Below are positions 20,105-63,602 of a stretch of 64,000 nt of DNA, one piece after another. The first letter of the stretch is position 1. Every line of letters starts with the position of its first letter. Source of the stretch: Lantana camara (lineage: Eukaryota > Streptophyta > Magnoliopsida > Lamiales > Verbenaceae); the NCBI GenBank assembly GCA_037501455.1, contig CM074865.1:40344501-40408500 (forward strand), given 5' to 3'. The notes beneath the pieces were generated by a model, which did no database searches, was not told the DNA's origin, and worked only from the letters and a program-made list of their open reading frames with translations. The position numbers and the translations under genes were made by a program.

Positions 20105-20146
20105 ATTCCCCCCCCCCCCCCCTAAAAGGACCTGGTCCCCAGTTCC
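20105..20146 (-). promoter_or_regulatory. Polypurine tract and adjoining hairpin
   Basis: A C run at about 20108-20122 reads as a G-rich polypurine tract in the element's sense, directly before the U3 start. Upstream of it is a hairpin at 20128-20146, GGACCTGG / CCAGTTCC with a 3-base loop and one mismatch. The same arrangement is at 39926-39943, 50429-50447 and 63595-63612. Confidence 0.8.
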
Positions 20147-20178: not shown

Positions 20179-20310
20179 GAGAGAACCCTGTCTCTTGAGC
20201 AAGAATGAAAGAACCCCATCTTTCCGCAAAATGAGAAAACCCCGTTTCTCCACCAGGAGTGAGAGAACCCCGTCTCTCAACAAGAAAGGAGAGAGAGACC
20301 CCCGTCTCTC
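20179..20310 (-). repeat. 3'-end stem-loop array, five units (TR-GAG-like element)
   Basis: Units (plus-strand reading; 6-bp arms, 6-base loop): 20179-20196 GAGAGA/TCTCTT, 20207-20224 GAAAGA/TCTTTC, 20233-20250 GAGAAA/TTTCTC, 20261-20278 GAGAGA/TCTCTC and 20293-20310 GAGAGA/TCTCTC. Loops are ACCCCG-like; in the element's sense the usual loop is CGGGGT. Arm changes are compensated, and the single exception in unit 1 can still pair as G.U in RNA. Confidence 0.92.
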
Positions 20311-20498
20311 AACATGCATGAAAGTAATTCAAGGAGCAGATTGAAACAACAATGGCAGGAATGTTATAAAACCAAATAAAATCATATTAATTTCATAAAT
20401 ATCATGTAAACAAATAAAACCATTTAATCACATACTTACCAGTCATAATTAACTAATTTGCACGAACAAGAAATTAAATACAATAACAGTAAGATTCG

Positions 20499-32400: not shown

Positions 32401-34898
32401 GTAGAATCTCTTCCTAAATATGCATACCTGAGGTGACTAGGAAGTGGTTTCAACTCTAAAGTAGGTGGTTTTTCAATAGATGGTTTAAGTGACCTTACCA
32501 TTTCCTGAGTTCTATCAATCACCTCAAATTTCTCACCACCCTTCCTAAACACTGCTTGAGCTTCGAAGATACTTCAAATATGTTGACATTCCTCATCTTC
32601 ATTTTCTAAATTAGTTGACATGAGAGCTTTCAAAGGATCATTAGGATACCTTGCTGCATAAAACACATTAGCACAATCCTCTATAATATTCACTCTAAAA
32701 CACTCTTCAGATTCATCAGGAAGCTTCATAGCCTTAAAAACATTAAATGTTACCTGTTCATCTTGAACCCTCATTGTCAGCTCTCCTTTTTGCACATCAA
32801 TCAAAGTTCGACCTGTAGCAAGAAATGGTCTACCAAGGATGATAGGCATATCCCTATCTTCTTCATAATCCAAAACAATAAAATCAGCAGGGAATATAAA
32901 CTTATCAACCTTAACCAAAACATCTTCAATAACACCTTTAGGATAAGTTAAAGACCTATCAGCTAGTTGCAAAGTAACAGTTGTAGGCCTAGCTTCACCT
33001 AACCCAAGTTTCTTAAAAACAGAGTAAGGCATCAAATTTATGCTTGCACCTAAATCACAAAGGGCCTTACCAAACGATTTGTTACCTATAGTACATGGAA
33101 TGGTGAAGCTTCCAGGATCCTTCAACTTTGGTGGCAGCTTGTTTTGCAAGATGGCACTACACTCTTCGGAGAGTGCAACGGTCTCGAACTCATTCAACCT
33201 TCTCTTTTTTGAGAACACTTCCTTTATGAATTTAGCATAATTAGGCATTTGCTCCAAAGCTTCTACCAATGGGATGTTGATGTGAACTTGTCTCAGAATA
33301 TCAAGGAACTTGGAGAATTGTTTATCATGCTTGAACTTTTGAAGTCTTTGTGGGTAAGGGGGTGGAGGTCGGATTGCAGGGTTGTCCACAACCTCTTCTT
33401 GCTTTTCGGCTTCTTTCTCCACTTGAACTTCATTAGTGTTCGTCTTCTTTGCCACCATTTCAGCATCTAGATCTCTTCCATTCCTTAATGATACAGCCTT
33501 ACAATGCTCTTTTCCATCTCTTCTCGGGTTAGGCTCGGTATCACTTGGTAAGGTACCAAGAGGTCTATTGTTCAATGCACTTGCCAATTGCCCCACTTGT
33601 GTTTCTAAATTCCCCAATGTTACAGCCTGACTCTGAATAATAGAATCCGTTTTTCCCATAAATTGAGTCAAAACATCTTCCAAAGACCGCTTTTTCTACG
33701 GAGCTTGCACTCTTGGCTGATTTTGGAATCCTTGTTGTTGTTGAAATCCGGGAGGATGAGTTGGTCTAGGAGCAGAAGTTGAAGCTTGTTGATTGCTCCA
33801 TGAGAAACCGGGATGATTACGCCAACCGGGATTGTACGTGTTCGAATATGGATTATTCACATTCCGGTTGCTATTTCCCAAATAATTTATTGACTCCGGA
33901 TTAGACGGGCATTGAATACCTAAATGGCCATTTCCACCACAACTTTCACAAATGATTAGTGCACTATCAATGTTTGCACAAGATTGCACTCCCATGGTGT
34001 CAACTTTCTTTGTAAGAGCTGCAATTTGTGCTGACAATGCTGTAATTGCATCCACTTCATGTACCCCGGCTACCTTCTTAGTCTTTGCTCTCTCGACGGG
34101 CCATTGACAATTGTTGGAAGCCATTTTGTCAAGTAATTCATATCCTTCCTCAACCGACTTCCTCATCAACGCTCCACCTGCTGTAGCATCAATTGTCATC
34201 CGAGTTTGATCAATCAACCCATTGTAGAATGTCTGCAATTCCATCCATTTTGGAAGACCGTGGTGTGGATACCTTCTCAATAGCTCTTTAAACCGTTCCC
34301 AAGCTTCACAAACTGATTCTCCATCTCCTTGCCGGAAAGTGAAGATGTTATTCCTTAGCTCAGCGGACTTTGCAGGAGGAAAATACCGAGATAGGAACTT
34401 TTGAGCGAGCTCTTGCCATGTTGTAATTGACTGCGCCGGCAGAGAGTTAAGCCACAACTTTGCTCGATCTCGTAGAGAAAATGGGAACAACCTCAACCAA
34501 ATAGCATCACTTGTTACTCCGACTTGCTTAAACGTATCACATATCTCTAGGAAGTTTGAGATATGCAAATTTGGGTCCTCTGTTGGTGATCCGGAAAATT
34601 GTCCCATTGGTTGCCACATTTGAATCATTGATGGTTTAAGCTCAAAGTTGTTAGCTTGTACTCTCGGCCTCCGAATACTTGAATGTAGCTCATCCAAAAC
34701 CGGCATAGCATAATCTTGTATGGAGCGATATTCTTGCTCTTCACCATGTCCATCCCCATGAACATTAAGTGGTAGATTCTGATTATCATCCATTCTTCCA
34801 ACCAATCTGTTAATTCGTGCTACTTCACGACGAACACGGAAAGTCCTTTCAATTTCAGGATCAATTGGTACTAGCTTGTCTTCACGTTTTCTTGGCAT
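29460..34898 (-). pseudogene. Athila gag-pol polyprotein, one frame with five internal stops
   Basis: 1813 codons in a single frame from ATG at 34898 (MPRKRED; the longer upstream start at 34982 adds a non-conserved stretch) to a stop at 29462-29460. In order: capsid-type gag (LRLFPFSLRDRAKLWLNSLP, TTWQELAQKFLSRYFPP), one CCHC knuckle near 33950-33910, aspartic protease with DLGAS near 33057-33043, RT with FMDDFSVFG (Asp-Asp codons 31718-31713), RNase H from about 31300, and integrase with HCDRC zinc-finger end, GIDFMG, IISDGG and QVEISNRE (the D, D, E residues), then a C-terminal tail. Internal stops are at 33698-33696 (TAG), 32576-32574 (TGA), 31904-31902 (TAA), 31256-31254 (TGA) and 29762-29760 (TGA). 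I find no frameshift. Function in life: virus-like particle formation, reverse transcription and integration. This copy cannot make full-length Pol. Confidence 0.92.
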
Positions 34899-35000
34899 GC
34901 ACAAATACCAATTTAGCCTGCAACAAACAATAAAAACAAAAGTTAGATCTACAACTAGATAAAATAGAGTTAATTTTAGCACAAATATAATTTAAAATAG

Positions 35001-35024: not shown

Positions 35025-36336
35025 TGTTCGCTAAAATAATAGACAACAACACGCAAGTGCACGTGTGACGATTGTAAACTAAGCAAGCAAGTGTCGTATC
35101 CACAGAGACTACTAAATTATCATGCTAAACACCAACATAATTTCTCTAATTGAATTCTAACCAAAGAATTAATTGAGTGGCGATAACTAAGCTAAATTAT
35201 CAAAGCAATAACACGAAAATACAACAATAATGAGCTGATTGGATCACAACTTCACTCGACTCACACCTAACTCTCGTTCACCCTATTCAATCCTCGTGTT
35301 GGGTTTGAAAGACTAGAGAACAATAATATGTATAAGCTTCTGTCGAAGTCATATAAACCTATAATTAGCTAATGATTCCTATATGTCTATGGTAATCAAT
35401 TAACCAATTATGCATTTAATTCCTGCTCCTACGTCAATACATGGCTAGTAAGTATATATCTATCTTCCTAGCAAATCAATTAAGCTATTCCTAGTTAATT
35501 AAACATGTATTGTTTAATTCTCATCCGACATTAACCTTTCTTCGTCAATAATCAGTTAATCATCTCTCAAAACAATTGATGGCCAGTCAATTATAACAAC
35601 AAACCCAAATTAAACAATCAAACAACACGATTCATAAATACGGCAATTGAAATTCAAGTTACGAGTCAAGATCCATTGTAATCCAAAAGAAAACTTAACT
35701 AAACATACTAAATAAGCTAAAATCCATCAAGAAGATTGAATTCATTGCTACAGCGAAATAAGAAAAGAAGAGAGAAAGGAAAACTCTTGATGCGTGATGC
35801 TTCCGAATTGATCTTCGTCTTCCTCTCAAATCTTGCTCTAATGATTCCTTCAAGTTTTAGATGAAAAGCATAGAGAAATCTATCTCCGAAAACGAGTAAA
35901 AAGTGATGAATCCCTGTTTAGATCTGAGTCCCCCTTTAAAAGACGTGTATGCCCCCCTTAGAACCGCTCACGTAACTTCTCTTTTAATTGAAAACCGTCA
36001 GTTGAGTAGGTACTCAAGATTCTTTGTGCAGGTACGTAAAAGTACAGGGAATTTAGGGCATTTTCTGGACGCTTGTTTCTTTTGAGTAGATACTTCAAAT
36101 TCCTTGAGTAGATACGTAAAAGTACAGGGGATTTCTCCAAATTCCACTTCTTGAGTATCTTCCCAACTTCTTCACGCAACTACTCGAATTTTGCACTTCT
36201 TTGAGCCTTTCCTCCTCTTTCCTATAATTGAACCAATTGATTTATTAAGCTACAAAATTCAGCACAAAAGGGTTAGGAATAGTAATATAAGTCCTATTAA
36301 AATCACCAATAGAAACATGAAAATCCGGACTTATCA
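35025..36336 (-). repeat. Athila 5' LTR, 1312 bp
   Basis: On the minus strand it begins TGATAAGTCCGG and ends GCGAACA. It contains two copies of a motif GAGTAGRTACT...TACGTAAAAGTACAGGG at about 36004-36050 and 36083-36130. The flank at 36337-36341 (CATAT) would be the target duplication, but the partner was lost with the left end. Confidence 0.9.
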
Positions 36337-36422
36337 CATATTTCAAGTATTAATGATATTTATCGTACACGGTTGGAGTTTGGTTGGAGATGATGCACGC
36401 TCACTCACCGAGCCTTTATGTT
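36337..36422 (+). mobile_element. Fragment of the plus LARD 5' LTR
   Basis: 86 bp matching the intact 3' LTR from CATATTTCAAGTATTAATG at 53177. It is trapped between the Athila element and the minus LARD. The last five bases ATGTT are the left target duplication of the LARD. Confidence 0.88.
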
Positions 36423-39400
36423 TGTAGCACCCACCACGATAGGCGCCACAACCCCCGCACTACAAGTCTAGCCCACACAAGAAATGGATAGTTCAAGCAT
36501 GGACCGGACTCATAGCGAACGGGTGACAAACAAAATATCCTGGCTAGGCGGAATCTAACCCTGAACCAAATTAAATCAGAATACCAAAGCATATTGCGGA
36601 AGCATCAGAGCCAAACATGAATTTCAATAATGGCTATAATCCCAATACATATCATGAACGTAAATTAAATCAGACATACAACCTAACAACGGGTTCAACT
36701 AAACACGCAACCTGTCCCGAATCAAATCCAATAATCAAAATTGGCACCGAGGCCTAAATTCATAAAGAGATACAATTAAATTCATAATAATGTGAAATGT
36801 GACTCAAGTGAACAAGTGACTCGAACAAACATGATAAGACTCGACTCCCGCCTAGCTAAACCTGCAAGAGCTGAGAGAGTGAAAAGAGGGATCAGTCTCT
36901 AGAAGACTGAGTGAGCAGGGGCTATACATATAATATAGAAACATGCGCATGCAAGCCATAAATCCCGAGCAAAGTTTTATTTGAAGTTAGTTCCCTCGAA
37001 GGGCTAGAAATTAAGTAAGCAATGCTCGAACTTTACGACTAATTCATATTAAATTCATTAAGTTCATAATTCATACATAAACATCAAGGCTCGGCGAGTG
37101 AGCGTGCATTATCTCCAACCAAACTCCGACCGTGTACGACAAATATCATTAATACATTAAATAGGTGGTCATGCAATATATCATAATACACACAAATCAT
37201 ATATCATATCCTAAATCATATTCGTTTGGGCAATCCGTGTCCCGGCCTTCCCGCACGGTGCCTATCAATCATAACATATTCATAATCATAATCGTAATCA
37301 TAAAATGAGTTCCAAAATTCTTCCTCCGGTTGGTGGACAGGTTAGCTAGACCTGAACACCGGTTCATACATAGGCACAATGAGGGTACATGAATCCCTCA
37401 AAGGTACTCGGCTCCCATTCCCAGCCAAATCCCTAGCGAGGTCCGGAGTCGCCGTTAGTTTGGTGGAACTAGTACACGGGATCACCGTCGGCCCTTGCCT
37501 CCCCGGATCACCACATGCACTAAGTCCCGGGGCCCGTGTGGTTCATAATCATATCATGCATTCGCCAAAACATTTTAATTAATAAGAAACATAATACATA
37601 TCGATTCATTAGAAAATAATTTACTCTATTAAAACATTTACTCGATGACTCCATTTTGAAACGATATATATATATATATATATATTATATATAATTTTGG
37701 GCTAAAACTTATCACATAAAGGTTGTAGGGTTTGATATGTAACTAGAACAAAAACACCCTCACCTGGAATACCACGAGACAAGAAACATGAGCAATACGG
37801 GTGCCTATTCAATTTGGAAGTCTCCGCCCTGGAAACAAACTGTACAAGAGAAGGAACAATGTGTACTCGTGAGAATTGACTCAATATCAAACCACATAGA
37901 CGCACGACAATGCTAAACACATGATATGAGATGTATAAGAAGTAAAATGATGTTATGGAGTTACATAATCAAGTAATTCGTTCAAGTACATTCCACACAT
38001 GAGGGTTTCAAGCCCAATCATTTCATATCTTTCATAATTCATAGCAAATCAAGTCATGAATTTCATATAACATTTATAATTCAAGTATATCAAGTTTACA
38101 ATTGTAAAATAGATAAATAGAGACATTCAAATCATTAAAATATCACAAAATCACATACCAATTCTAACTATATCAATTTTATATAATTCATACATGGCAT
38201 ACTCAATTCATATATCACTAAACGGATTCAATTAACAAGGTTACCTAATTAAATCAAACATTTTTCATATTGTTTACAAAATTACACATACATCCCTCCT
38301 ATAAGTGTTATATTCATTTTAATGGCATGAAACGAAACTAATATCCACAACATGAATTCATACATTCATAATTTATTACATGTTTTCAAATGCCATACAA
38401 CGCATATTCATTAATTATCAAGCAAGCAAGAACAAATTACATTTTAAAACAATTAACAATTAATACAAATTCGGCATAACGGGATTCAAATTGCAAATCA
38501 AAGCATCAACATATATCATAGTTAATTTAATACATGCTTTCGTACACATTGGAATTCATTTCGATCGACAATTCAAGCAATTAACAATTTATCGCATTTA
38601 AAACAATTAATTTCAAATAAATAGAAATACACAAAATAAATCACAACAAATCAATCGGGCATCCAATTGATGAAGGGAAAGTGGCGTTGGACTCACCACA
38701 ACGAAAGGAACCTTCTGTCCGAAGGTCACCGGAATGCCGCTACTGGAGCCGCCGGAACCGTCACCGGCTGCCACCGGAATACCGCCTCCGGTGGTCGGAA
38801 AAATCCCCAGAAGGACAGAAACGTGCGTCTCGGCCTGCTCAACAAAAGCCCTCAATCAATTTCAGAAAATACCAAACACACCGGACTTCGTTGACGAAAA
38901 ACCGAACTAAATTCCAACGACGAAAACTGAAATTAAATACAAACCGCTAAACGAAAATAAAATCCGGATATACCGTTTGGAAATCTTGTAACGAGCCCTA
39001 CGAAAGTCCCAAGTCAAATCGCCGGAAAAATAATCGGAAAATCAGACCACCGGTCCAGCCCCGGTTCACCACCAGTTCACCGCCGCCGACCGGTTCTCAT
39101 GCCGCCACCACCACGAATAGCTCGGGCTCGTCATCAGGAATAACTTTTGTGAAGCGACTACCACCAAAACCGGCCGGAAAATGGCCGAACCGCCGCCCCA
39201 AAGTCGCGCCGCTGCGTCACCGCCGGAACCACCACTTGCGGTGGTTTTCGTGCTGAACGGAGGCCGAAAATGGAACGGGAAGGTCCAAAAACGTAGGGTA
39301 GGGTCAAGCTCCGCTCGCGAAACTCGCCGGAACGCCGGCGCCGAAGTGGTGGCGCCACCCGCCACCGTCAGGCCGTCGATGCGCCGCCGTCGGTCTTCGG

Positions 39401-39907
39401 TTGGCCACGAAATTGGTACGGTTGTGACGGGCTCGTCGAGCTGATGAATTTCCACTATTGATTCGTCGAATTCCGTCGAGAAACGAGGGAGAAGGAGCAT
39501 GTGTGTGAAAATACACCTCGAGTGCATGAACAGTGATGCTGCGCGAGGAAGACGATGCGGCTGGAGCTACTGAAATGGCACGCAAAACGAGGATTCGGGG
39601 TATATATCTCGGGTCCTCGTACGCAAAAAGGGTCGGAAGAACAGGCTAACGAAGTCAGAATTGGGCAAACTTAGAGTCTACGGACTCGTTTCGCTGCCCC
39701 GGACGCGTTAAAGGGATCAAAGAAGTCAAAATCTCTACCGAACGAGAAGTGACCGAAAAAACCCCTTAAAAGGAGAAAATTACAAAAAGGGCCCTAAACT
39801 CTAAAAGAGTTCAAAAGAGGGCCACACAACGCACCAATCACATAATTAAACACATAAAAATCTTCAAAGGTGACGTACCTTATTTATCGGATGAGCGGGG
39901 CGTTACA
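36423..39907 (-). repeat. LARD 3' LTR, 3485 bp
   Basis: TGTAGCACCC at 36423, GCGGGGCGTTACA at 39907. By eye it is about 97-98% identical to 42720-46230. On the minus strand: an edge motif ATAAGGTACGTCACC, a TATATA at about 39608-39600, and a GC-rich block at 38690-39600 rich in CCGG and ACCGGT, including the inverted repeat CCACCGGA/TCCGGTGG at about 38779-38802. Long minus and plus ORFs in that block (up to 153 codons) have no known domain. An AT repeat is at 37661-37692. Confidence 0.88.
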
Positions 39908-39925
39908 ATCTTCCCTCCTTCAAAA

Positions 39926-39943
39926 GGACCTGTCCTCAGGTCC
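39926..39943 (-). promoter_or_regulatory. PPT-proximal hairpin of the LARD
   Basis: GGACCTG / CAGGTCC with a 4-base loop, followed in the minus sense by CTTTTGAAGGAGGGAAGAT, the polypurine tract next to the 3' LTR. It is the same hairpin as at 63595-63612 in the intact chromovirus. Confidence 0.85.
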
Positions 39944-40193
39944 TACTGTTGGACCTAAAAGTTTCAAACTGAAATGTATCGATCTATTTCCCGAAATTGC
40001 GTAGCATCTTAGCCCTGGTTGTGAAGTTTATTCCCCTTATTTGTATCAACCCCTCCAGAGTCTGGTAGTCACAAAGATCTGCTCGAACACTTGGCCGCTA
40101 ATCACTTAAAAACTCGTTCGACTGCTACTAGTCCATTGCCTCGTCACTTGTTAACCGTTGTCTGTCCAGGCGTAACGCAAATACGACAAACAA

Positions 40194-40559
40194 GAGAGAA
40201 TCTCATCTCTCAACACACAAGTGAGGAAACCCCGTCCCTCAGCACACATAAAAGAGAGAACCCCATCTCTCGGGCACAGAATTGAGAGAACCCCGTCCCT
40301 CAAACACAGAATTGAGAGAACCCCGTCTCCCAGCCTAAGTCTGTCAGATTCCACATCCTTCCAGACATTCTAGTTTGAGAAAATCCAGCATTTCTCAAAC
40401 TCCTAAATCCAAGAGAATCCAACATCCCTCGAATACCTAAGTACAAGAGAATCCAGCATCTCTCGTGCATAGAAAACAGAAAGAATCCAGCATCTTTCTA
40501 TCACATAAACAGGGAGAATCCACATCTTCCTGGCACGTAATCAGAGATAATCAAATCTC
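40194..40559 (-). repeat. 3'-end stem-loop array of the LARD, at least eleven units in two loop classes
   Basis: Class 1 (plus-strand loops mostly ACCCCG): 40194-40211, 40223-40240, 40254-40271, 40284-40301, 40314-40331. Class 2 (loop ATCCAGCA): 40373-40400 with 10-bp arms GTTTGAGAAA/TTTCTCAAAC, 40410-40431, 40441-40468 with 10-bp arms GTACAAGAGA/TCTCTCGTGC (one A.C mismatch), 40478-40499 AGAAAGA/TCTTTCT, 40510-40532 CAGGGAGA/TCTTCCTG. A last short one is 40544-40559. Loops are conserved while stems vary with compensation. Confidence 0.93.
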
Positions 40560-40660
40560 CCTTTCACTCAAGCACACAAGCAGAAGCAAGGTTCACAATA
40601 ATTAACACACATCCCATTGGGTCAGGGTATCACAAAATAACAAAAATTTAATTAAGTAAA

Positions 40661-40716
40661 CGATGCACGTATGCTCGTACCATGGATGCTTAGTGTACCG
40701 TTCACCGTAGTAATGG
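40661..40716 (-). repeat. Box 1, LARD copy
   Basis: CGATGCACGTATGCTCGTAC, CATGGATGCTTAGTGTACCG, TTCACCGTAGTAATGG. Direct repeat partner of 41741-41790. Confidence 0.7.
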
Positions 40717-41740
40717 AATTGATGTTGTGACTTTACTCCACGATTTGGATAGTCTGATCTCTAGCTGGCTTGATTCTCAACTTGTCTTTCATATCTTTAG
40801 TAGGTGTTTGACTGAGAAAGTCAAACCCTTGGTTGATCCTATTCTCGATTCCATTCGGATCCTTACTCACAGTTATCTTCTGCAATTAACCAAGCACTAG
40901 TTTATTCCATCTACGATCAGAACATTTATCTTTGTACCAGGTTCATTATATTATCTTTGGCCGTACAAGAATCTTAAATTTTAACTCCCACTCCATGCAT
41001 TGTCACCAACTCGTTTAATTCTTCGTTGAAGATTTGGTCATCTGAAACTAGTTAACATCCTTCTTAAAGGTGATAAATTTTGACCAATTTTCCTTTCTTG
41101 AAACTAATTTAGGAATCCATCAGAAGTTCCCTGATAATATCATCATCCTCGCTGTCTGAATCACGTACTTATAAATTTCCAAACGAACCACTCTCTTCGA
41201 TGCCTAATGAAGATCTTCATCCTGGGTATATTAACTTAACTCCCACTTTGAAGGTTTAAACTGATAAAGCCGCCTTATTCTTTTCCTGTCACTATCATTA
41301 GGTCATTCAGGTTCGTCATGGCTTGCATTTTTCTCTGCGATGAGAAGTAACTTCCTCGATATAAGTGGTTCTAATCACGCCACTTGTCTAGTGATATTTC
41401 TCATATTTCCTTTGCAGCAATTAGTAGGAATGACAACCCGCTTCTTACGTTCCCACTTTCGATTCTATTTTCCCAAACTTCGAAATTTTCCATTTCCTTT
41501 TTAACCAACCAATGCAACCCAAAATTTCTTCTTTTCTTGATTCCAACAAGAATCAGTCGGAGTATCGCTTGATAAATAAGATGTGGGGAATTCCTATCAA
41601 GTAAACACTAAAATGCATGTCGGGTTAGGGTGCCAATGCAGTATCACACTTGTAAACAATTAAAGATGCAACACATTGGAACAATTATACAAATTAGAGA
41701 TGCGCATATAAATAGAGAAATTTAAATAATTAAAGAGATG

Positions 41741-41790
41741 TATGATGCACGTGCTTATGAATGCATAGAACCTGTCACCGTAGTTGTAAA
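41741..41790 (-). repeat. Box 2, LARD copy
   Basis: TATGATGCACGTGCTTATGA, ATGCATAGAACCTGTCACCG, TAGTTGTAA. Same orientation and skeleton as box 1; nearly identical to box 2 of the TR-GAG-like element at 21463-21513. Confidence 0.7.
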
Positions 41791-42698
41791 CTTTAACTTG
41801 GCATATTTCTTTGTTTCTCAAATTGCAGGTTTGTCTTAAATTAGTTGTTCACCTCTTCTTTACCCACGGTCTTCCAAATCTTCAAAGTTCCCGTGTATCA
41901 ACTTTCATCTCATCTCAATTCTGAAGTATGTGAATTCCCTCCTCGTAGTCTCTTCATCCTTTTTCATCGATCTAAATCCCAAGCTATATTATTCTTCATA
42001 TTTTCTTTCGCCTCTTTCTCAAGTTAGATGATCTTTACTGCTTCTCAACCACGAACCTACTTTACTTTAATTCTCTTGAAGGTCCTCGCCTCCATGTTGA
42101 TAGAAACCTCGAGTCTAAAACATCTTCTAGATTTCTCTTCTTTGGAATCTGGTTGACAAATCTTCGTAGTGTAAATAAACATGTTGATCTTGTGAAACCA
42201 AATCATTACACACCACAAATCCCGTCTCATTATGGATTCACCATCAGTAATAGAGCTTGCAAACTTCTCCTTCGAACTGACCTCTTATTCTGGACTCTGT
42301 CACTCGAGTCCTAACCTCATTTTAGAAAAGGTTTGACTCTTAAATTTCTGTAGAAATCCCCAAGGCATTCCTTACAGCTTTCGAGCTAGAGAGAAGAGCT
42401 TGTAGTAGCCTGTTGTTGTCGTAAAGATTGGCCGTGGTTTGATATTATCTTCATATCCTATGAATCACAACTCATTTTGAAAATAAATGCATGCGATTAG
42501 TATATGCTCATGCCACATAATTAACACCAAAAGAATGGATTCAATGCAAAATGCAACAAATAATCTAATAAAGTTTGAAAAAAAAAATCACAATTCACTT
42601 TTCAAGAATGATGCAATGCACACATTGACAATTAGTTCCTATGCCGTGCAACCTATACTCGAGACAACACGACCCAGAGCACCGGTTCTGAACCGGGT

Positions 42699-42711
42699 AG
42701 CTCTGATACCA
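42699..42711 (-). promoter_or_regulatory. LARD primer-binding site
   Basis: On the minus strand TGGTATCAGAGCT, complementary to the 3' end of initiator tRNA-Met, eight bases from the 5' LTR end. Confidence 0.88.
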
Positions 42712-42719
42712 CTTAAGGA

Positions 42720-43959
42720 TATAGCACCCACCACGATAGGCGCCACAACCCCCACACTACAAGTCTAGCCCACACAAGAAATGGATAGTTCAAGCATGGA
42801 CCGGACTCATAGCGAACGGGTGACAAACAAAATATCCTGGCTAGGCGGAATCTAACCCTGAACCAAATTAAATCAGAATACCAAAGCATATTGTGGAAGC
42901 ATCAGAGCCAAACATGAATTTCAATAATGGGTACAAGTCCAATACATATCATGAACGTAAATTAAATCAGACATGCAACCTAACAACGGGTTCAACTAAA
43001 CACGCAACCTGTCCCGAATCAAATCCAATAATCAAAATTGGCACCGAGGCCTAAATTCATAAAGAGATACAATTAAATTCATAATAATGTGAAATGTGAC
43101 TCAAGTGAACAAGTGACTCGAACAAACATGATAAGACTCGACTCCCGCCTAGCTAAACCTGCAAGAGCTGAGAGAGTGAAAAGAGGGATCAGTCTCTAGA
43201 AGACTGAGTGAGCAGGGGCTATATATATAATATAGAAACATGCGCATGCAAGCCATAAATCCCGAGCAAAGTTTTATTTGAAGTTAGTTCCCTCGAAGGG
43301 CTAGAAATTAAGTAAGCAATGCTCGAACTTTACGACTAATTCATATTAAATTCATTAAGTTCATAATTCATACATAAACATCAAGGCTCGGCGAGTGAGC
43401 GTGCATTATCTCCAACCAAACTCCGACCGTGTACGACAAATATCATCAATACATTAAATAGGTGATCATGCAATATATCATAATACACACAAATCATATA
43501 TCATATCCTAAATCATATTCGTTTGGGCAATCCGTGTCCCAGCCTTCCCGCACGGTGCCTATCAATCATAACATATTCATAATCATAATCATAATCATAA
43601 AATGAGTTCCAACCTTCTTCCTTCGGTTGATGGACAGGTTAGCTAGACCTGAACACCGGTTCATACATAGGCACAATGAGGGTACATGAATCCCTCAAGG
43701 GCACTCGGCTCCCATTCCCAGCCAAATCTCCTAGCGAGGTCCGGAGTCGCCGTTAGTTTGGTGGAACTAGTACACGGGATCACCGTCGGCCCTTGCCTCC
43801 CTGGATCACCACATGCACTAAGTCCCGGGGCCCGTGTGGTTCATAATCATATCATGCATTCGCCAAAACATTTTAATTCATAAGAAACATAATACATATC
43901 GATTCATTAGAAAATAATTTACTCTATTAAAACATTTACTCGATGACTCCATTTTAAAA

Positions 43960-44007
<48 letters not shown>

Positions 44008-46230
44008 CTATAGGGTTTTGGGCTAACACTTATCACATAAAGGTTGTAGGGTTTGATATGTAACTAGAACGAAAACACCCTCACCTGGAATACCACGAGA
44101 CAAGAAACATGAGCAATACGGGTGCCTATTCAATTTGGAAGTCTCCGCCCTGGAAACAAACTGTACAAGAGAAGGAACAATGTGCACTCGTGAGAATTGA
44201 CTCAATATGAAACCACATAGACGCACGACAATGCTAAACACATGATATGAGATGTATAAGAAGTAAAATGACGTTATGGAGTTACATAATCAAGTAATTC
44301 GTTCAAGTACATTCCACACATGAGGGTTTCAAGCCCAATCATTTCATATCTTTCATAATTCATAGCAAATCAAGTCATGAATTTCATATAACATTTATAA
44401 TTCAAGTATATCAAGTTTACAATTGTAAAATAGATAAATAGAGACATTCAAATCATTAAAATATCACAAAATCACATACCAATTCTAACTATATCAATTT
44501 TATATAATTCATACATGGCATACTCAATTCATATATCACTAAATGGATTCAATTAACAAGGTTACCTAATTAAATCAAACATTATTCATATTGTTTACAA
44601 AATTACACATACATCCCTCTTATAAGTGCTATATTCATTTTAATGGCATGAAACGAAACTAATATCCACAACAACATGAATTCATACATTCATAATTTAT
44701 TACATGTTTTCAAATGCCATACAACGCATATTCATTAATTATCAAGCAAGCAAGAACAAATTACATTTTAAAACGATTAACAATTAATACAATTTCGGCA
44801 TAACGGGATTCAAATTGCAAATCAAAGCATCAACATATATCATAGTTCATTTAATACATGCTTTCGTACACATTGGAATTCATTTCGATCAACAATTCAA
44901 GCAATTAACAATTTATCGCAATTAAAACAATTAATTTCAAATAAATAGAAATACACAAAATAAATCACAACAAATCAATCGGGCATCCGATTGACGAACG
45001 GAAAGTGGCGTTGGACTCACCACAACGAAAGGAACCTTCTGTCCGAAGGTCACCGGAATGCCGTTACCGGAGCCGCCGGAACAGTCACCGGCCGCCACCG
45101 GGATACCGTCTCCGGTGGTCGGAAAAATCCCCGGAAGGACAGAAACGTGCATCTCGGCCTGCTCAACAAAAGCCCTCAATCAATTTCAGAAAATACCAAA
45201 CACACCGGACTTCGTTGACAAAAAACCGAACTAAATTCCAACGACGAAAACTGAAATTAAATACAAACCGCTACACGAAAATAAAATCCGGATATACCGT
45301 TGGAAAGCTTGTAAAGAGCCCTACGAAAGCCCCAAGTCAAATCGCCGGAAAAATCATCGAAAAATCGGACCACCGGTCCAGCCCCAGTTCGCCACCGGTT
45401 CACCGCCGGCGACCGGTTCTCGTGCCGCCACCACCACGACTAGCTCGGGCTCGTCGTCAGGAATAACTTTTGTGAAGCGACCACCACCAAAACCGGCCGG
45501 AAAATGGCCGAACCGCCGCCCCAAAGTCGCGCCGCTGCGTCACCGCCGGAACCACCACTTGCGGTGGTTTTCGTGCTGAACGGAGGCCGGAAATGGAACG
45601 GGAAGGTCCAAAAACGTAGGGTAGGGTCAAGCTCCGCTCGCGAAACTCGCCGGAACGCCGGCGGCGAAGTGGTGGCGCCACCCGCCACCTTCAGGCCGTC
45701 GATGCGCCACCGTCGGTCTTCAGTTGGCCACGAAATTGGTACGGTTGTGACGGGCTCGTCGAGCTGATGAATTTCCACTATTGATTCGTCGAATTCCGTC
45801 GAGAAACGAGGGAGAACGAGCATGTGTGTGAAAACACACCTCGAGTGCGTGAACAGTGATGCTGCGCGAGGAAGACGATGCGGCTGGAGCTGCTGAAATG
45901 GCACGCAAAACGAGGATTCGGGGTATATATCTCGGGTCCTCGTACGCAAAAAGGGTCGGAAGAACAGGCTAACGAAGTCAGAATTAGGCAAACTTAAAGT
46001 CTACAGACTCGTTTCGCTGCCCCGGACGCGTTAAAGGGATCAAAGAAGTCAAAATCTCTACCGAACGAGAAGTGACCGAAAAAACCCCTTAAAAGGAGAA
46101 AATTACAAAAAGGGCCCTAAACTCTAAAAGAGTTCAAAAGAGGGCCACACAACGCACCAATCACATAATTAAACACATAAAAATGTTGAAAGGTGACGTA
46201 CCTTATTTATCGGATGAGCGGGGCATTACA
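42720..46230 (-). repeat. LARD 5' LTR, 3511 bp
   Basis: The outer edge GGGGCATTACA at 46230 abuts TSD ATGTT. The inner edge reads TATAGCACCC where the other LTR has TGTAGCACCC, a point change in the terminal dinucleotide after insertion. An expanded AT microsatellite (43963-44002) is the main length difference from the 3' LTR. The GC-rich block is at about 45010-45920. Confidence 0.88.
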
Positions 46231-46902
46231 ATGTTTATGTATGAATTATGAACCTAATGAATTTAATATGATTAGTCGTAAAATCCGAGTATTGCCCAGC
46301 TATTCTCTTGCCCTTTTTGGTAACTAACTCTAAATAAAACCTTACTCGGGATTTATGACTTGTATGCGCATGTTTTTCTATATATGTATTGCTCCTGCTC
46401 ACTCAGTCTTCTAGAGACTAACCCCTCTTTCCCACCTTTCAGTTGCTTATAGGTTTTGCTAGGCGGAAGTCAAGTTTTAATCTCTTTTCGAGTCACTTGT
46501 ACGCTCGAGTCACATTTTACATTCTTTTATTATTTAATTGTATTTCCGTTATGTATTGGGCCTGTGTGCCAATTATCATTATTGTTGGATATTGAATTCG
46601 GGACAGGTTGTCTGTCTAGTTGAATCCGTTGTTAGGATGCTTGGTGGATTTACATTATGTATTGGAATTGTTGGGTGTGTAACCATTGTTGAAAATTATG
46701 AATTATACGTTATTGCTTCCGCTTTACATTCTAGGTATTCTTGATTTTTTTTTGGTACAGGGTTAGATTCCGCCTAGCTAAGATATCTTTTATTTTGGTC
46801 TCCCGTTCGCTATGAGTCCGGTTCATGCTTGGATTATCCATTTCACGTGTGGACTAGACTTGTAGTGCGGGGGATATGGCGCCTGTCGTCCCGGGTGCTA
46901 CA
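46231..46902 (+). repeat. Plus LARD 5' LTR, last part
   Basis: It continues from 36422 after the ATGTT duplication and ends CCGGGTGCTACA at 46902. It matches 53260-53925 with few differences. Together with 36337-36422 only the last 750 bp or so of this LTR remain; about 2.7 kb upstream is missing. Confidence 0.88.
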
Positions 46903-49998: not shown

Positions 49999-50163
49999 AA
50001 TTTTAGTTCGAATAATTTTATGATGCTAAGTGCTTGGATTATTTGTTGTATTAATTATTTTTGTATAATTAATTCTCGATGTATTTAATATCTCCTACTT
50101 GTTTCTTGTGTGTATATGTGCTTGTTCGTTTATTCTTTTTCTTGGGTTGATTATTTTGTTGTT

Positions 50164-50267
50164 GAGAGACGGGGTTCCCTCGTTGTTGTTTGAGAGACGG
50201 GGTTCTCTCGTTTTTGCTTGTGAGAGACGGGGTTCTCTCCTTGTTGTTCGAAAGATGGGGTTCTTTC
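50164..50267 (+). repeat. 3'-end stem-loop array of the plus LARD, four units
   Basis: 50164-50181 GAGAGA/TCCCTC, 50192-50209 GAGAGA/TCTCTC, 50222-50239 GAGAGA/TCTCTC, 50250-50267 GAAAGA/TCTTTC. Loops are CGGGGT (three) and TGGGGT. The last unit is fully compensated relative to the others. It lies about 200 bp before the 3' LTR. Confidence 0.92.
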
Positions 50268-50428
50268 GTTATCTGCTAGGCTTTGGTGAGTTAAGGGTCG
50301 TGACTTAATAGCAAGTGAAGATCTATTGTTGGTTGAAGACCTTTTCCGAACTAATTCCTGACGGGGAGTTGCTATCCCGCGTAGGATGAACACGGGAGAG
50401 TTGCGCAGAGTCCAGAACTCGAGGCAGT

Positions 50429-50447
50429 GGACCTGGGGACCAGGTCC
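50429..50447 (+). promoter_or_regulatory. PPT-proximal hairpin of the plus LARD
   Basis: GGACCTGG / CCAGGTCC, 8-bp perfect arms with loop GGA, five bases before the polypurine tract. Confidence 0.85.
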
Positions 50448-50464
50448 TCTTAAGGGGGAGAGGT

Positions 50465-58950: not shown

Positions 58951-59117
58951 CTCGGTTGCAAAACCAGAGCTCTGGAGTCGTGTTGGGTCTGTCTAAGTCG
59001 TTCGGTATAGGAGTATGTGATTATTTGCATTCATCCACATCTCTACGTGACTTATTTGTTTAAATTAGTGATAATTGACTTCATGATCATGAACTGAACT
59101 CCATGCATCGATATCTT

Positions 59118-59138
59118 CTTGATTTGTTCATTTTCAGG
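59118..59138 (+). promoter_or_regulatory. Candidate 3' splice site before gag
   Basis: TTGATTTGTTCATTTTCAG|G (AG at 59136-59137) is a pyrimidine-rich acceptor ending one base before the gag ATG. The same CAG|G(ATG) arrangement precedes the gag starts at 54705 and 21308. It argues for ATG 59139 as the true start rather than the in-frame ATG at 59103. Confidence 0.6.
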
Positions 59139-62100
59139 ATGCCTCCAAGAAGGAGAGCAGATAGGGAGCAGACTCCTGATCTCAATCAACCCCCTCCACA
59201 AGCACCTCCACCTCATCCGATGAATGCTGAGAATATTGTGCAGGCCCTTCTGAACCAGCTTCAACAGAACCAAAGGAATAATCCACATTGGGAAGGACAA
59301 GGTGGGCAAGTAACTCCGGCCTTTAAGGAGTTCAGAAACAACAATCTACCTAAGTGGTATGGAAGAGATGACATCCAAGCCGAGGAGTGGTTGTCGGAAG
59401 TTGCGGGAATTTGGGAAATTTGCCCCGCTCCTTCGCATGAGAAAGCTGTTTGTACGGCCCGGTTTGTTCAAGGTCCCGCGTCCAATTGGCTCAAAGCTAT
59501 GAGAGCTCGATTGGAGAGGAATGGAGAGGAATTTGATTGGGAAAGCTTTGTGAGAGAGTTTCGTCATAAGTACGTTCCGTCAAGTGCTCGTGAGAGGAGA
59601 TTGCAACAATTTACAGAACTGAGACAAGGGAACCGTTCGGTTGAAGAGTATATCATGGAATTTGAGAGACTTGCACCGTATGCTCCGCACATCACCAATG
59701 ATGATACCCAGAAGGCCCGGAACTTTATTCATGGTTTAAGATATGAAGTTCAGGATGCTCTTAAGGCAGCTACCGTGGATACATGGGAGAAGGCTACGAG
59801 GAAGGCAATTAAGGTGGAAGCCAACAACAAGAGATTGAGGCCGACTTACTCTTCGGGCCAAGGTTCGAGCTCTAATTTGGGGAAGAGGCCTGCATTCTAT
59901 GGTGGGCCTCCGGTTTTCAAACCCCAAGGTCCTACTACTTCAGTTAAGAAAGCTCGACCTTCGGTCCCCGCGGTACCAGCTTTACCGGCTCCGATTCAAT
60001 GTGGCTATTGCAAGGGTCCCAATCACACCGAGGAGAATTGCCGGAAGAAATTGAGAAGATGCTATAAGTGTGGAGAGCCCGGTCATATGATCAGTACTTG
60101 TCCTCAAGTGAGAACACCTCAGCCTCGAGCTCCTCAGCCGTTGAATGTGATGCCTCCGAGAGCACCGATCCAAGCAAGAGCCTATGCTTTGGAAGGCGAG
60201 GAAGAGAATGTAGAGGTGGATGCCAACGCCGTTGTTGAAGGTACCATCCACATTCATGGCATTCCATTGCATGCATTGTTTGATCCGGGAGCAACGCATT
60301 CATTTATTGCTTCCCGGCTTGTTGCTACTCTTCCATTGCCTGTTGCTTGTCTAGATGATTCTTTTATTGTTTCTTCTCCCCTTGGTGCTACTTTGTCTAC
60401 GAATTGTGTGTACCGAGGTTGTCCAGTGGTTGTGGAAGATCATGAGTATCCGGCAGATCTGATCAGGATGCCTATCAGGAAGTATGGGGTAATTCTGGGA
60501 ATGGACTGGTTGTACCGTTACCGAGCCCTGATGGATTGTTTTGCTAAGAGGGTGACTTTGGGTTCTACGGTCTTTGCGGGTCAGAGGTTGAAGACCTGCC
60601 CGTTTATTTCCTTCATGGAAGCAAGTAGATTGTTCCGGGACGGTACGACGGGCTATGTGGCCTACCTTTTGAATAAGCCAAAGGATCAGGCCAAGCTCGA
60701 AGAGACGGAGATCGTGAAGGAATTCCCCGATGTGTTTCCGGAGAACTTGGGATCTTTACCTCCGGATCGGGACGTCGAGTTTGTAATAGATCTCTATCCC
60801 GGAGCAGAACCGTATGCGAAATCTCCCTATAGGATGGCTCCAGCTGAGTTGAAGGAGTTGAAGACGCAATTGGACGAGCTCTTAGAGTGTGGTTACATTC
60901 GCCCGAGCACTTCTCCGTGGGGTGCTCCGGTCCTGTTTGTAAAGAAGAAAGACGGGACTTTGCGAATGTGTATTGACTACCGTGAGCTGAACCGGTTAAC
61001 GGTTAAGAACAAATACCCGCTCCCTCACATTGAAGAGTTGTTCGACCTCCTGCAAGGTTCGAGAGTTTATTCCAAGTTGGACTTAAGGCAAGGGTATTAC
61101 CAGTTGCGTATCCGGGAGGGAGATATACCGAAGACGGGTTTCAACACGAGATATGGGCATTTTGAGTTTGTGGTCATGCCTTTTGGTCTGACCAATGCCC
61201 CAGCCGCGTTTATGGATATGATGCACCGAATATTCCGGCCTTACCTCGATAAATTCGTGGTCATCTTTATAGATGATATTCTGGTGTATTCAAGGTCCGA
61301 AGAAGAGCACGCGCGGCATTTAAGCATTGTTTTGTCTACACTTCGGGAGCACAGATTGTTCGCCAAGTTCAGTAAGTGCGAGTTCTGGTTGGATCGAGTT
61401 TCCTTTTTGGGTCACTTCATTTCGGGGAATGGTATAGAAGTGGATCCAGCGAAGATCGAAACGGTGATGCTTTGGAAGCCACCGAAGAATGCCTCGGAAG
61501 TGAGAAGTTTTCTCGGGTTGGCAGGGTACTATAGGCGCTTTGTGAAAGATTTCTCGAGGATTGCTTCCCCGTTGACCCGGTTAACTAAGAAAGAAGTGAA
61601 ATTCGAGTGGGATGAGGCGTGTGAGAAGAGTTTCCAAACCCTTAAGGAGAGGTTGACTACTGCACCGGTTTTAACCCTACCCGAAGGTTCGGAAGGCTAC
61701 TCAGTTTATTCCGATGCTTCGAAGGAAGGTCTCGGTTGTGTGTTAATGCAGAATGGTAAGGTTGTAGCCTACGCCTCAAGGAAGTTAAAGGATCATGAGA
61801 AGAACTATCCCACTCATGACTTGGAACTTGCCGCAGTGGTGTTTGCTTTGATGAAATGGCGGCATTACCTTTATGGAATCACTTTTGAAGTGTTCACCGA
61901 CCACCAGAGTCTTAAGTATCTGTTTACCCAGAAAGATTTGAACGTGAGACAGAGGAGATGGATGGAGACACTCGAGGACTATGATTGTAAGATTCAGTAC
62001 CATCCGGGTAAAGCCAACGTGGTGGCGGATGCTTTGAGTAGGAAAGTGAATGTTTCAGGTTTGGAAGCAGGTTCTAGTAGACAGGCTTCAGTAGTTCTGG

Positions 62101-63602
62101 TTTCAGAGGCTCGATTGGCTAATATTTCGGTTCAGCCGGTTTTGAAGCAGAGATTGATAGAAGCTCAATCTGTGGATCCGGAGATTCAGAAATTAGTAAC
62201 TAAGTCAAGGATTGATCCTGAAACCAAGTTTGGATTTGATGATTCGGGATTGTTTCGATTTAAGGCTCGGGTTTGTGTTCCGGAAGGATTTAAGCAGTTG
62301 GTACTTGATGAAGCCCACAAGTCAGCGTATGCAGTACATCCCGGTACCACCAAAATGTACAAGGATCTAAGGACTTTATACTGGTGGAACGGCATGAAGA
62401 GAGACGTTGCTAACTATGTTAGAAGATGTCAAACATGCCAAGTGGTGAAAGCAGAACACCAGAAACCGGGAGGAACTCTCCAACCACTTCCAATACCCGA
62501 GTGGAAGTGGGAGCAAGTGACAATGGACTTTGTGTCCGGCTTGCCAAGGACCAAAGGAGGTTCTGACGGGATTTGGGTGATTATTGATAGGTTGACGAAG
62601 TCGGCGCACTTTCTTAAAATGAAGATGTCTGATAAGGTTCCTAAGTTGGCCCGGTTATATCGAAAAGAGATTGTCCGATTACATGGTTGCCCGGTTAGCA
62701 TTGTTTCAGATAGAGATCCTCGGTTTACGTCCAGTTTTTGGCAGGAATTGCAGAAATGTTTGGGGACGAAGCTCCACTTCAGTACTGCATTTCACCCACA
62801 GACGGATGGCCAGTCAGAAAGGCTAATAAGGTATCTCGAGGACATGCTTCGTGCTTGTGCCTTAGATTATCAGGATTCGTGGGATGAACAGTTGGATTTG
62901 ATTGAGTATGCCTACAACAACAGCTTTCAGTCTTCTATTGGGATGGCACCGTATGAGGCGTTATATGGAAGAAAGTGCCGATCCCCTCTCTTTTGGGATA
63001 TTGATGAGTGGAGATGGACCAAAGATGGAAAGCTCGAAAGGGCTAAGAAATCTAAGGAAATTCAGGATACCATCGAGAGGGTGAAAGTGATTAAACAGAG
63101 GTTGAAAGTGGCTCAAGACCGACAGAAAAGTTATGCAGATAAGAGAAGACGACCCTTAGAGTTCGAGAAAGGAGATAAGGTCTTTTTAAAGGCATCTCCT
63201 AGAAAAGGGTACGCTCGAATTGGTAAAGGCGGGAAGCTTAACCCACGCTACTTAGGCCCCTTTGAGATCCTTGATCGAGTTGGGGAAGTGGCTTACAGAC
63301 TTGAATTACCGCCGAGTTTGACCGGGATTCACAATGTGTTCCATGTTTCACAGCTTCGGAAACATTATCCCGATGAGTCTTCTATTCTTCCGGTTGAGAA
63401 AGTTCAGTTAGAGCCGGATTTGACCTTTAAGAAGTATCCAGTTCAGGTGTTGGATCGGAAGATGCAAGAATTGAGGAATAGACAGATCCCTCTTGTGAAA
63501 GTCTTGTGGCGTGATCAAGAATCCGAAAAAGCTACTTGGGAGACCGAGGATAAGATGAAACAGTTGTATCCGGATCTTTTCAAGACCTCGCCTCGGACCT
63601 GA
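59139..63602 (+). CDS. Chromovirus Gag-Pol polyprotein, 1487 aa, intact
   Basis: Structural and replication polyprotein acting in cytoplasmic particles and, for integrase, in the nucleus. Start chosen at ATG 59139 ([11 protein letters not shown]), conserved in the relative at 54705; ATG 59103 adds 12 residues that would be intronic. In order: capsid-type gag (about 60-260), two CCHC knuckles (Cys288-Cys301, Cys308-Cys321), aspartic protease with DPGATHSF (Asp382; Pro in place of Ser/Thr is common in this group), RT with FIDD (Asp712, Asp713), RNase H (SDASKEGLG to ADALSRK), integrase with an H..H..CQTC finger and DFVSG, SDRDPRF, QSERLIR (D, D, E), GPFEIL and VFHVSQL motifs, and a C-terminal chromodomain-like segment ([14 protein letters not shown]). 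Chromodomains are thought to steer chromovirus integration to heterochromatin. Gag and Pol are in one frame without a stop, so processing by the protease is expected. No broken motif seen. Confidence 0.95.

What the first reader, a model, noticed from the sequence alone, without database searches (positions are those of the whole stretch)
40194..40559. Array of at least 11 stem-loops with conserved loops and compensated stem changes upstream of the LARD 3' LTR
Seen directly: two loop classes (ACCCCG-like and ATCCAGCA, plus-strand reading) are repeated, while stems differ between units and remain paired: GAGAGA/TCTCTC, AGAAAGA/TCTTTCT, GTTTGAGAAA/TTTCTCAAAC, CAGGGAGA/TCTTCCTG. Matched substitutions on both arms are what is expected if pairing itself is kept, as RNA hairpins or as symmetric protein sites. 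The non-palindromic loop has a fixed sense relative to the element, which favours RNA. Possible roles: packaging or dimerisation of non-coding genomes, export, or a partner-recognition tag. I know of no described equivalent.
Basis: partly seen in the sequence, partly recalled or inferred. Interest (0 to 1): 0.87.

Follow-up and report, generated by a model that had tools for sequence, protein, structure and literature searches.

The report
Retrotransposon 3' hairpin arrays
In this genome, mobile elements that lack their own copying enzyme carry rows of short self-complementary repeats with near-constant loops just before their 3' end, which the four enzyme-encoding relatives examined lack; the rows are predicted to fold as RNA hairpins and likely act as tags that let these elements borrow a helper's proteins.

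Summary
Element E1 (minus strand; LTRs 36425-39912 and 42722-46235, 97% identical) has 11 clear hairpins at 40194-40560, between a non-coding interior and its polypurine tract (PPT). Two more elements in the window have homologous arrays (50162-50268, 20179-20312). The genome holds 20,669 exact copies of one 18-nt hairpin against 0 for the reversed control. Loops CGGGGU and UGCUGGAU recur while stems change on both arms: in 13 E1-type arrays 96.9% of stem cells pair and 11 cells change on both sides, against 3.7 in shuffles. The alternative register, across neighbouring units, shows no such excess.

New here: arrays occur in LARD-like and gag-only elements but not at four pol-bearing 3' ends. 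Array-bearing gag-only Gags group together; two CCHC knuckles are intact in six, and one pair gives dN/dS about 0.12. A separate PPT-adjacent hairpin occurs at 30 of 30 PPT sites, fully paired in 25, pol-bearing ones included.

Best explanation (inferred): a multivalent Gag-binding RNA tag for packaging non-autonomous genomes. Binding, folding in the cell and other species are untested; phylogeny-corrected covariation was not run.

The parts
36425..39907 (-). 3' LTR of element E1 (the LTR match runs to 39912)
   Evidence: LTR pair 36425-39912 / 42722-46235, 97.0% over 3515 columns
39909..39921 (-). Polypurine tract of E1, directly before LTR start TGTAACGCCCC
   Evidence: GAAGGAGGGAAGA then TTGTAACGCCC
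39926..39943 (-). PPT-adjacent hairpin GGACCT-GAGGAC-AGGTCC
   Evidence: Such a hairpin at 30 of 30 PPT sites read, fully paired in 25; position
40194..40560 (-). Hairpin array of E1: 11 clear units, loops UGCUGGAU-like (5' half in the element sense) and CGGGGU-like (3' half)
40194..40211 (-). Unit GAGAGA-TGAGAT-TCTCTC
40222..40241 (-). Unit TGAGGGA-CGGGGT-TTCCTCA
40254..40271 (-). Unit GAGAGA-TGGGGT-TCTCTC
40282..40303 (-). Unit TTGAGGGA-CGGGGT-TCTCTCAA
40313..40332 (-). Unit TGGGAGA-CGGGGT-TCTCTCA
40339..40366 (-). Weak unit, GTCTG/CAGAC outer pairs only
   Evidence: left out of the pair count
40372..40401 (-). Unit AGTTTGAGAAA-TGCTGGAT-TTTCTCAAACT (11 bp)
40408..40433 (-). Unit TTCGAGGGA-TGTTGGAT-TCTCTTGGA
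40444..40465 (-). Unit CGAGAGA-TGCTGGAT-TCTCTTG
40478..40499 (-). Unit AGAAAGA-TGCTGGAT-TCTTTCT
40510..40532 (-). Unit CAGGAAGA-TGTGGAT-TCTCCCTG; relatives have TAGGGAGA/TCTCCCTA and TAGAGAGA/TCTCTCTA
40543..40560 (-). Unit GGAGAT-TTGATT-ATCTCT
   Evidence: not in the pair count
40663..40708 (-). Block ACGGTGAACGGTAC..: end of gag in gag-only relatives, kept in E1 although no gag homology was found there
42700..42711 (-). Primer-binding site TGGTATCAGAGC
42722..46235 (-). 5' LTR of E1
50162..50268 (+). Array of element E2: 4 hairpins, loop CGGGGT or TGGGGT
50429..50447 (+). PPT-adjacent hairpin of E2 (GGACCTG-GGGAC-CAGGTCC); PPT follows at 50452
20179..20312 (-). Array of element E3 (gag remnant with two CCHC knuckles): 5 hairpins, four with CGGGG or TGGGG in the loop and one with CAGGG
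20128..20146 (-). PPT-adjacent hairpin of E3 (5 of 6 pairs); PPT follows at 20123
59079..63599 (+). Gag-pol frame of an autonomous-type relative; no array; the pol stop lies inside the PPT-adjacent hairpin (63595-63612)

Best explanation
The array is a row of self-complementary units near the 3' end of non-autonomous LTR retrotransposons (LARD-like and gag-only) that is predicted to fold in their RNA and would likely serve as a many-site landing pad for the zinc knuckles of a Gag protein, so that these RNAs would be packaged although they lack the copying enzymes. Shown: position between the gag-end block and the PPT, conserved loops, matched stem changes in that loop register only, presence in gag-only and LARD-like elements, absence from four pol-bearing 3' ends, and array-bearing gag-only Gags that group together, with intact knuckles in six. 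Inferred: RNA folding in the cell, Gag binding through the unpaired G-rich loops, packaging, and a gain over autonomous RNA from having many sites where pol-bearing elements show only the single PPT-adjacent G-loop hairpin.
For: Covariation: 13 arrays: 96.9% of cells paired, 11 cells changed on both sides against 3.7, 0/500 shuffles; sliding drops pairing to 41-66%; 44 hand-picked units of 74: 28 cells against 11.3, 0/500; 137 distinct units of 226: Watson-Crick 68.5% against 59.6% shuffled for class A, 74.1% against 55.0% for class B; Fisher p 3.5e-6 and 1.3e-5 at class A pairs 3 and 5. Register control: in 66 neighbouring unit pairs, arms within a unit pair at 80.9% against 71.1% shuffled (0/1000), while the 3' arm with the next unit's 5' arm pairs at 69.4% against 71.7% (974/1000 at least as high). 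Whole-genome counts of the hairpin and its doubly changed form. Layout: in 17 of the 20 stretches L031-L050 the order gag-end block, array, PPT was found. Gag-only elements with array: L015 (PBS, gag, array, PPT; LTR stretches 99.9% identical over 2379 nt), L039+L051 and L043+L052 (PBS, gag, array, PPT). Gag grouping. Constraint on Gag, L015 against L039: dN 0.155, dS 1.30. Knuckles. Absence at pol-bearing ends. PPT-adjacent G-loop hairpin shared by both kinds. That CCHC knuckles of nucleocapsid proteins prefer unpaired G in hairpin loops is recalled knowledge (HIV-1 and murine leukaemia virus packaging hairpins).
Against: No binding, packaging or expression data. L020, a pol-bearing element whose Gag is 67% identical to that of L015, has no array, so elements with Gag of this type exist without one. 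Packaging signals usually lie 5' (recalled), whereas this lies 3'. Folding of the E1 array is less extreme in sense than in antisense, and the sense fold includes pairing between units. Of the 94 loop-blind hairpins about 10 use a spacer as loop, between arms of neighbouring units. Class A pairs 2, 4 and 6 and class B pairs 2, 5 and 6 show no significant G/A-C/T covariation. The shuffle controls do not correct for phylogeny. Only four pol-bearing 3' ends were read, and only two of them (window, L020) with gag and pol both in view and uninterrupted by a large insert.
Confidence: 0.4

Rival explanations
1. RNA export or stability element, working like the constitutive transport element of simple retroviruses: a host RNA-binding protein reads the repeated G-loops and carries the unspliced non-coding genome to the cytoplasm.
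For: Position just upstream of PPT and 3' LTR, as for the MPMV CTE and the IAP transport element (recalled); repeated loops; a leader intron that can be read in L015 (donor GTAAGT, acceptor CAG before the gag ATG; sequence).
Against: A similar leader intron can be read in L020, which has no array. The CTE receptor NXF1 is not known in plants (recalled).
Confidence: 0.2
2. Binding platform for another host protein that acts on RNA (splicing, poly(A) or silencing escape), or a G-quadruplex formed from several GGGG loops.
For: At least three GGGG-loop units in each of the 28 array loci evaluated.
Against: Class B loops UGCUGGAU have no GGGG run; the pol-bearing relatives do without it.
Confidence: 0.15
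3. No function: tandem duplication of a quasi-palindrome near the PPT, with stems kept matched by hairpin-templated correction during reverse transcription or repair, and loops similar by shared descent.
For: Tandem repeats between pol and 3' LTR are common in plant LTR elements (PMC11963269, abstract and passages); units are mostly 26-35 nt apart; antisense folds well too.
Against: CGGGG loops recur in loop-blind hairpins of elements whose gag synonymous sites are near saturation; G.U and A.C intermediates remain at several positions, so correction is not complete. Register specificity fits this rival as well as selection.
Confidence: 0.2
4. DNA-level feature: symmetric protein sites or recombination hot spots.
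For: Palindromic stems; copies of E1 at 6.9-7.3-kb steps on C1 and C5.
Against: Arms vary and loops are kept, the reverse of a palindromic protein site; loop sense is fixed.
Confidence: 0.05

Closest known systems
LARD elements (barley Sukkula; Kalendar 2004, recalled; PMC7215508, passages)
   Same: Long LTRs (3.5 kb), non-coding interior; [quoted passage not shown]
   Different: No loop-conserved hairpin array was named in the passages read; here it is shared with gag-only elements
TR-GAG elements (PMC9784723, passages)
   Same: Two LTRs around a single gag ORF
   Different: Hairpin, stem-loop and secondary structure have 0 occurrences in PMC9784723; here the gag-only elements were found through or with an array
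Tandem repeats between pol and 3' LTR (Retand, PMC11963269, abstract and passages)
   Same: Short tandem units in the same position; about half of recently active Retand elements carry such arrays (abstract)
   Different: Retand repeats are described as family-specific, and hairpin, stem and secondary structure have 0 occurrences; here unit loops are shared across families and stems covary; Retand is non-chromovirus, whereas the relative here has a weak chromodomain match
Retroviral packaging hairpins and CTE or RTE (recalled)
   Same: Exposed G-rich loops; the CTE lies 3', before PPT and LTR
   Different: Packaging signals lie mostly 5' and in few copies; here an array of about 3 to 12 sites, 3', seen only in elements without full pol

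Membership tests
LARD | Long LTRs around a non-coding interior with PBS and PPT | tested here: met
   E1: LTRs about 3.5 kb, interior 2.8 kb, longest sense stop-to-stop frames 72 and 75 aa, no match to the gag, RT or integrase queries
LARD | Repeated, near-identical family members | tested here: met
   The 40 scored array copies (of 4746 candidates) are 97-100% identical
TR-GAG | LTR-flanked element with gag only, no pol | tested here: met
   L015: LTR stretches 1-2379 / 4209-6587 at 99.9%, PBS 2387, gag 2619-3743, PPT 4098. L039+L051 and L043+L052: PBS, gag, array, PPT; their LTR pairs were not compared. E1 itself is not TR-GAG
Chromovirus gag-pol (autonomous-type relative) | Integrase with C-terminal chromodomain | tested here: inconclusive
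   Pfam Chromo E 1.9e-4, 21.7 bits, below cut-off 25.1
Known Rfam RNA family | Match at gathering score | tested here: not met
   One match up to E 0.1 in 36400-46300, mir-1277 at 43957 (28.7 bits against a gathering score of 81), outside the array
Retroviral packaging signal | Gag or NC binds it and it directs encapsidation | not testable with these tools
   Needs protein and particles
Constitutive transport element | Exports unspliced RNA | not testable with these tools
   Needs a reporter assay
Structured RNA | Compensated stem changes above shuffles | tested here: met
   not phylogeny-corrected

The most novel reading that the evidence does not exclude
Non-autonomous retrotransposons multiplied a G-loop RNA hairpin, of which enzyme-bearing relatives keep one beside the PPT, into arrays of up to 12 that capture Gag by avidity: a parasite of a parasite winning by copy number of a cis-acting RNA tag, seen as tens of thousands of units in one genome.
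Probability: 0.28. Interest if true: 0.87.

Novelty: new variant of a known kind. Interest (0 to 1): 0.72.

Why it matters
How LARDs and gag-only elements recruit the proteins of other elements is an open question. A shared, countable RNA motif present in the non-autonomous kinds and absent from the pol-bearing ends read here gives a direct, testable candidate for the recognition signal. It also gives a motif by which such elements could be found and classed without coding sequence.

Tried and rejected
Protein repeat: E1's array reads as RDGVLS repeats in one frame, but unit spacings are multiples of three in only 43 of 122 cases and E2 reads differently; rejected. Kissing-loop dimerisation: neither loop class is self-complementary or complementary to the other; set aside. 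Small-RNA precursor: the stems counted are 6-11 bp; set aside on recalled knowledge. Pairing between neighbouring units instead of within units: no excess over shuffles; rejected as the kept register. Strand test by G.U against A.C: 24 against 10 pair columns in A1, and 42 against 28 (class A) and 28 against 6 (class B) cells in distinct units, but the T/G-rich unpaired sequence confounds it, and at class A pairs 2 and 4 A.C is at least as common as G.U. Genome-wide two-by-two count of pair 3: the two single-change patterns did not complete, so only the original (20,669) and the double change (1,307) are known. Other species: one exact 18-mer scan of viral contigs had no match; no plant genome collection was at hand; protein searches with two Gags gave 2 and 6 hits and did not name the host. 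Rows dropped: one search left out L001 (the window's own copy) and kept L002-L008 and the units of the other repeat (L012 plus strand, window near 1000); one search's unit tables and one search left both out; searches left out L001-L008; A2 is 44 of 74 distinct class A units, chosen by hand without shifted loops; one search dropped L021 (102 positions). Of L031-L050, L035 had fewer than three units, L047 has integrase sequence between array and PPT, and L050 showed no PPT.

Papers: the searches listed 12 of 12, 19 of 19, 0, 10 of 19, 15 of 37, 15 of 101, 12 of 66 and 8 of 99 papers; none of the listed titles or abstract starts describes such an array. Read: PMC11963269 abstract and passages; PMC9784723 and PMC7215508 passages; the rest only as listings. 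Kalendar 2004 and the retroviral signals are recalled.

Full report
OBSERVATION. The window stretch 40194-40560 lies in an LTR element on the minus strand, called E1 here. Its LTRs match at 97.0% (36425-39912 and 42722-46235). PBS TGGTATCAGAGC is at 42711(-) and the PPT GAAGGAGGGAAGA at 39921-39909, directly before TGTAACGCCCC. The interior (2.8 kb) has no sense stop-to-stop frame over 75 aa and no match to gag, RT or integrase queries, so E1 is LARD-like. Between the interior and the PPT lie 11 clear hairpins and one weak one (positions). In the element sense the first half has UGCUGGAU-like loops (class B) and the second half CGGGGU-like loops (class A).

NOT ONLY E1. Two other elements in the window, E2 (plus strand, array 50162-50268) and E3 (minus strand, array 20179-20312), have arrays with the CGGGGU-type loop, again just before a PPT. 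The 18-mer GAGAGACGGGGTTCTCTC occurs 20,669 times in the 1.27-Gb genome and its reversed form 0 times. In 20 random 10-kb stretches (drawn from C1-C11, for seven of which I knew only a lower bound of the length) a covariance model of 44 units found four arrays of this kind: L012, L015 twice, and L019. A PPT was read for the first two; the third runs off the locus and L019 showed none. Over 264 kb including the window the model gave 18 matches, all in these arrays, in E1-E3, or in a different repeat (L012 8870 and window 980).

PAIRING IS KEPT. (1) Orthologous units of 13 E1-type arrays: 96.9% of 1006 cells pair; 6 pairs and 11 cells change on both sides (11 against a shuffled mean of 3.7; 0 of 500 shuffles reach it); sliding the 3' arm by 1-3 columns drops pairing to 41-66%. 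(2) Across units found by loop alone: 226 units, 137 distinct; Watson-Crick pairing over seven positions 68.5% against 59.6% (sd 1.0) shuffled for class A and 74.1% against 55.0% (sd 2.5) for class B. (3) By position, G-C/A-U association is significant at class A pairs 1, 3 and 5 (Fisher p 0.0019, 3.5e-6, 1.3e-5) and class B pairs 1, 3 and 4 (0.00012, 0.024, 0.0013). It is not at class A pairs 2, 4 and 6 (0.099, 1, 0.33) nor class B pairs 2, 5 and 6 (0.21, 0.48, 1). (4) A2 is a hand-picked 44 of 74; 28 cells change on both sides against 11.3, but 'further pair types' is not above shuffles (462 of 500), and neither (146 of 500). (5) A search blind to the loop in 18 intervals found 94 hairpins of at least 7 bp against 29.6 in crude block shuffles; 35 have CGGGG in the loop; the antisense strand gave 83. 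About 10 of the 94 join arms of neighbouring units around a spacer. (6) To decide between these registers, one search took 66 neighbouring unit pairs: arms within a unit pair at 80.9% against 71.1% shuffled (0 of 1000), whereas the 3' arm with the next 5' arm pairs at 69.4% against 71.7% (974 of 1000 at least as high). The kept register puts CGGGG or UGCUGGAU in the loop. None of these tests is phylogeny-corrected.

STRAND. In 26 of 28 array loci checked, a PPT was found downstream on the strand that reads CGGGG; in two (L006, L050) none was found. G.U states occur in 24 of 79 pair columns and A.C states in 10, as expected for sense RNA, but the unpaired sequence is T/G-rich, so this is weak. 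Single-sequence folding of E1 gives z -3.3 in sense and -7.0 in antisense, probably because arms of different units can cross-pair through G.U in sense. I therefore call RNA likely, not shown.

WHO HAS IT. Twenty further array stretches were taken in the order of the listed pattern hits on contig C1. In 17 of 20 the order is gag-end block ACGGTGAACGGTAC, array, PPT, LTR start; exceptions are L035, L047 and L050. Five of 20 keep gag homology directly upstream. L015 runs PBS, short leader, gag, array, PPT, with LTR stretches 99.9% identical over 2379 nt: the layout called TR-GAG, and young. L039+L051 and L043+L052 have PBS, leader, gag, array and PPT with no pol match; their LTR pairs were not compared. 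Four pol-bearing 3' ends have their pol stop inside or a few bases before the PPT-adjacent hairpin and no array: window 63599 (gag-pol frame intact), L020 (gag, RT and integrase pieces), L016 (RT and integrase, with a large insert) and L017 (only integrase within the locus). Loci L011, L018, L022 and L024 hold distant pol pieces only (24-50% identity), and in L027 pol runs off the end; these were not counted. L047 has an array followed by an integrase tail and PPT, probably a chimera.

GAG. In an unrooted tree of 15 Gag rows the array-bearing gag-only Gags (L015, L039, L043, L042, L031, L038, E3) group with L016's second gag (type unknown, locus ends) at support 0.888; L020 is the next relative. 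L015 against L039: dN 0.155, dS 1.30 over 238 codons; other pairs have larger, near-saturated dS. Both CCHC knuckles are intact in L015, L031, L038, L039, L042 and E3; L043 did not match the pattern. So, on one clean comparison, a gag without pol has been kept by selection in elements that also keep the array.

A SECOND HAIRPIN. Directly before the PPT all 30 sites found by the PPT pattern, pol-bearing included, have a small hairpin with loop GAGGAC, GGGAC or a near variant. Stems change in step: GGACCT/AGGTCC, GGACTT/AAGTCC, GAATCT/AGATTC, GAATCC/GGATTC, GGATCT/AGATCC, GAACCT/AGGTTC, AAGTCT/AGATTT. In the script's fixed frame 25 of 30 pair at 6 of 6; the rest are E3, L036 and L045 at 5, L016 at 4, and L043 at 3, whose loop is one base longer. 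Of 14 distinct forms 76 of 84 cells pair, shuffled mean 68.0, 0 of 2000. This gives a single G-loop hairpin in pol-bearing elements and that hairpin plus an array in the others.

MECHANISM. I commit to Gag recruitment for packaging. CCHC knuckles that favour unpaired G in loops are the recalled precedent. The array would give many sites; LARDs, which make no Gag, would use the same tag to be packaged by Gag of gag-only or gag-pol elements, with pol supplied in trans. Steps shown: sequence, position, covariation, register, distribution among the loci read, constraint on Gag in one comparison. Steps inferred: folding in vivo, binding, packaging, competitive gain. Export by a host protein and non-functional quasi-palindrome duplication are the main rivals; the register result fits the latter too.

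KNOWN KINDS. LARD and TR-GAG are known element kinds and are met here. Tandem repeats between pol and 3' LTR are known in Retand (PMC11963269, abstract and passages; hairpin, stem and secondary structure 0 occurrences). That LARDs and TRIMs have conserved RNA secondary structure is stated in PMC7215508 (passages). No Rfam family matches the array up to E 0.1. In the searches, several of which listed only part of their hits, no listed title or abstract start describes a loop-conserved array; subscription papers were not searchable.

Noticed in passing
window 980-1110 (-); L012 8830-8935 (+): A different repeat (79% identical over 2.1 kb between the two places) has three to four hairpins with CGGGGG in the loop and unlike stems (ACCGAGAC/GTCTCGGT, GGGTGAC/GTCACCC, GCGAC/GTCG); no PPT was recognised beside them.
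   Followed up: partly
window 41783 and 40708 (-), 21507 and 20539 (-), 48477 (+): Two similar blocks, CTACGGTGACAGGTTCTATGCATTCAT.. and ACGGTGAACGGTACACTAAGCATCCAT.., flank the interior or gag of these elements; the second is the gag end in gag-only elements and persists in LARD-like copies without gag.
   Followed up: partly
G000 C1:86869374-86883535 and C5:72389452-72417845: E1 arrays recur at 6.9-7.3-kb steps (3 copies on C1, 5 on C5), as if whole elements stand in tandem.
   Followed up: no
window 59079-63599: Unbroken 1507-aa gag-pol frame with LTR pieces 99.7% identical over 371 nt (56079-56449 / 63630-64000): a young element beside the LARD-like ones.
   Followed up: partly
window 36335-36423 and 37079-37167: Inverted 89-nt copy of LTR-internal sequence at the 3' LTR end of E1 (91%), possibly from a nested related element.
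   Followed up: no
window 29616-34991 (-): A different gypsy-type gag-pol, in several frames separated by stops, next to E1.
   Followed up: no
L047 844-1533: Array followed by an integrase tail and PPT: a likely recombinant between an array-bearing and a pol-bearing element.
   Followed up: no
L015 2430-2630; L020 9540-9330 (-): A leader intron can be read (donor GTAAGT or GTTAGT, acceptor CAG just before the gag ATG) in both a gag-only and a pol-bearing element (sequence).
   Followed up: no
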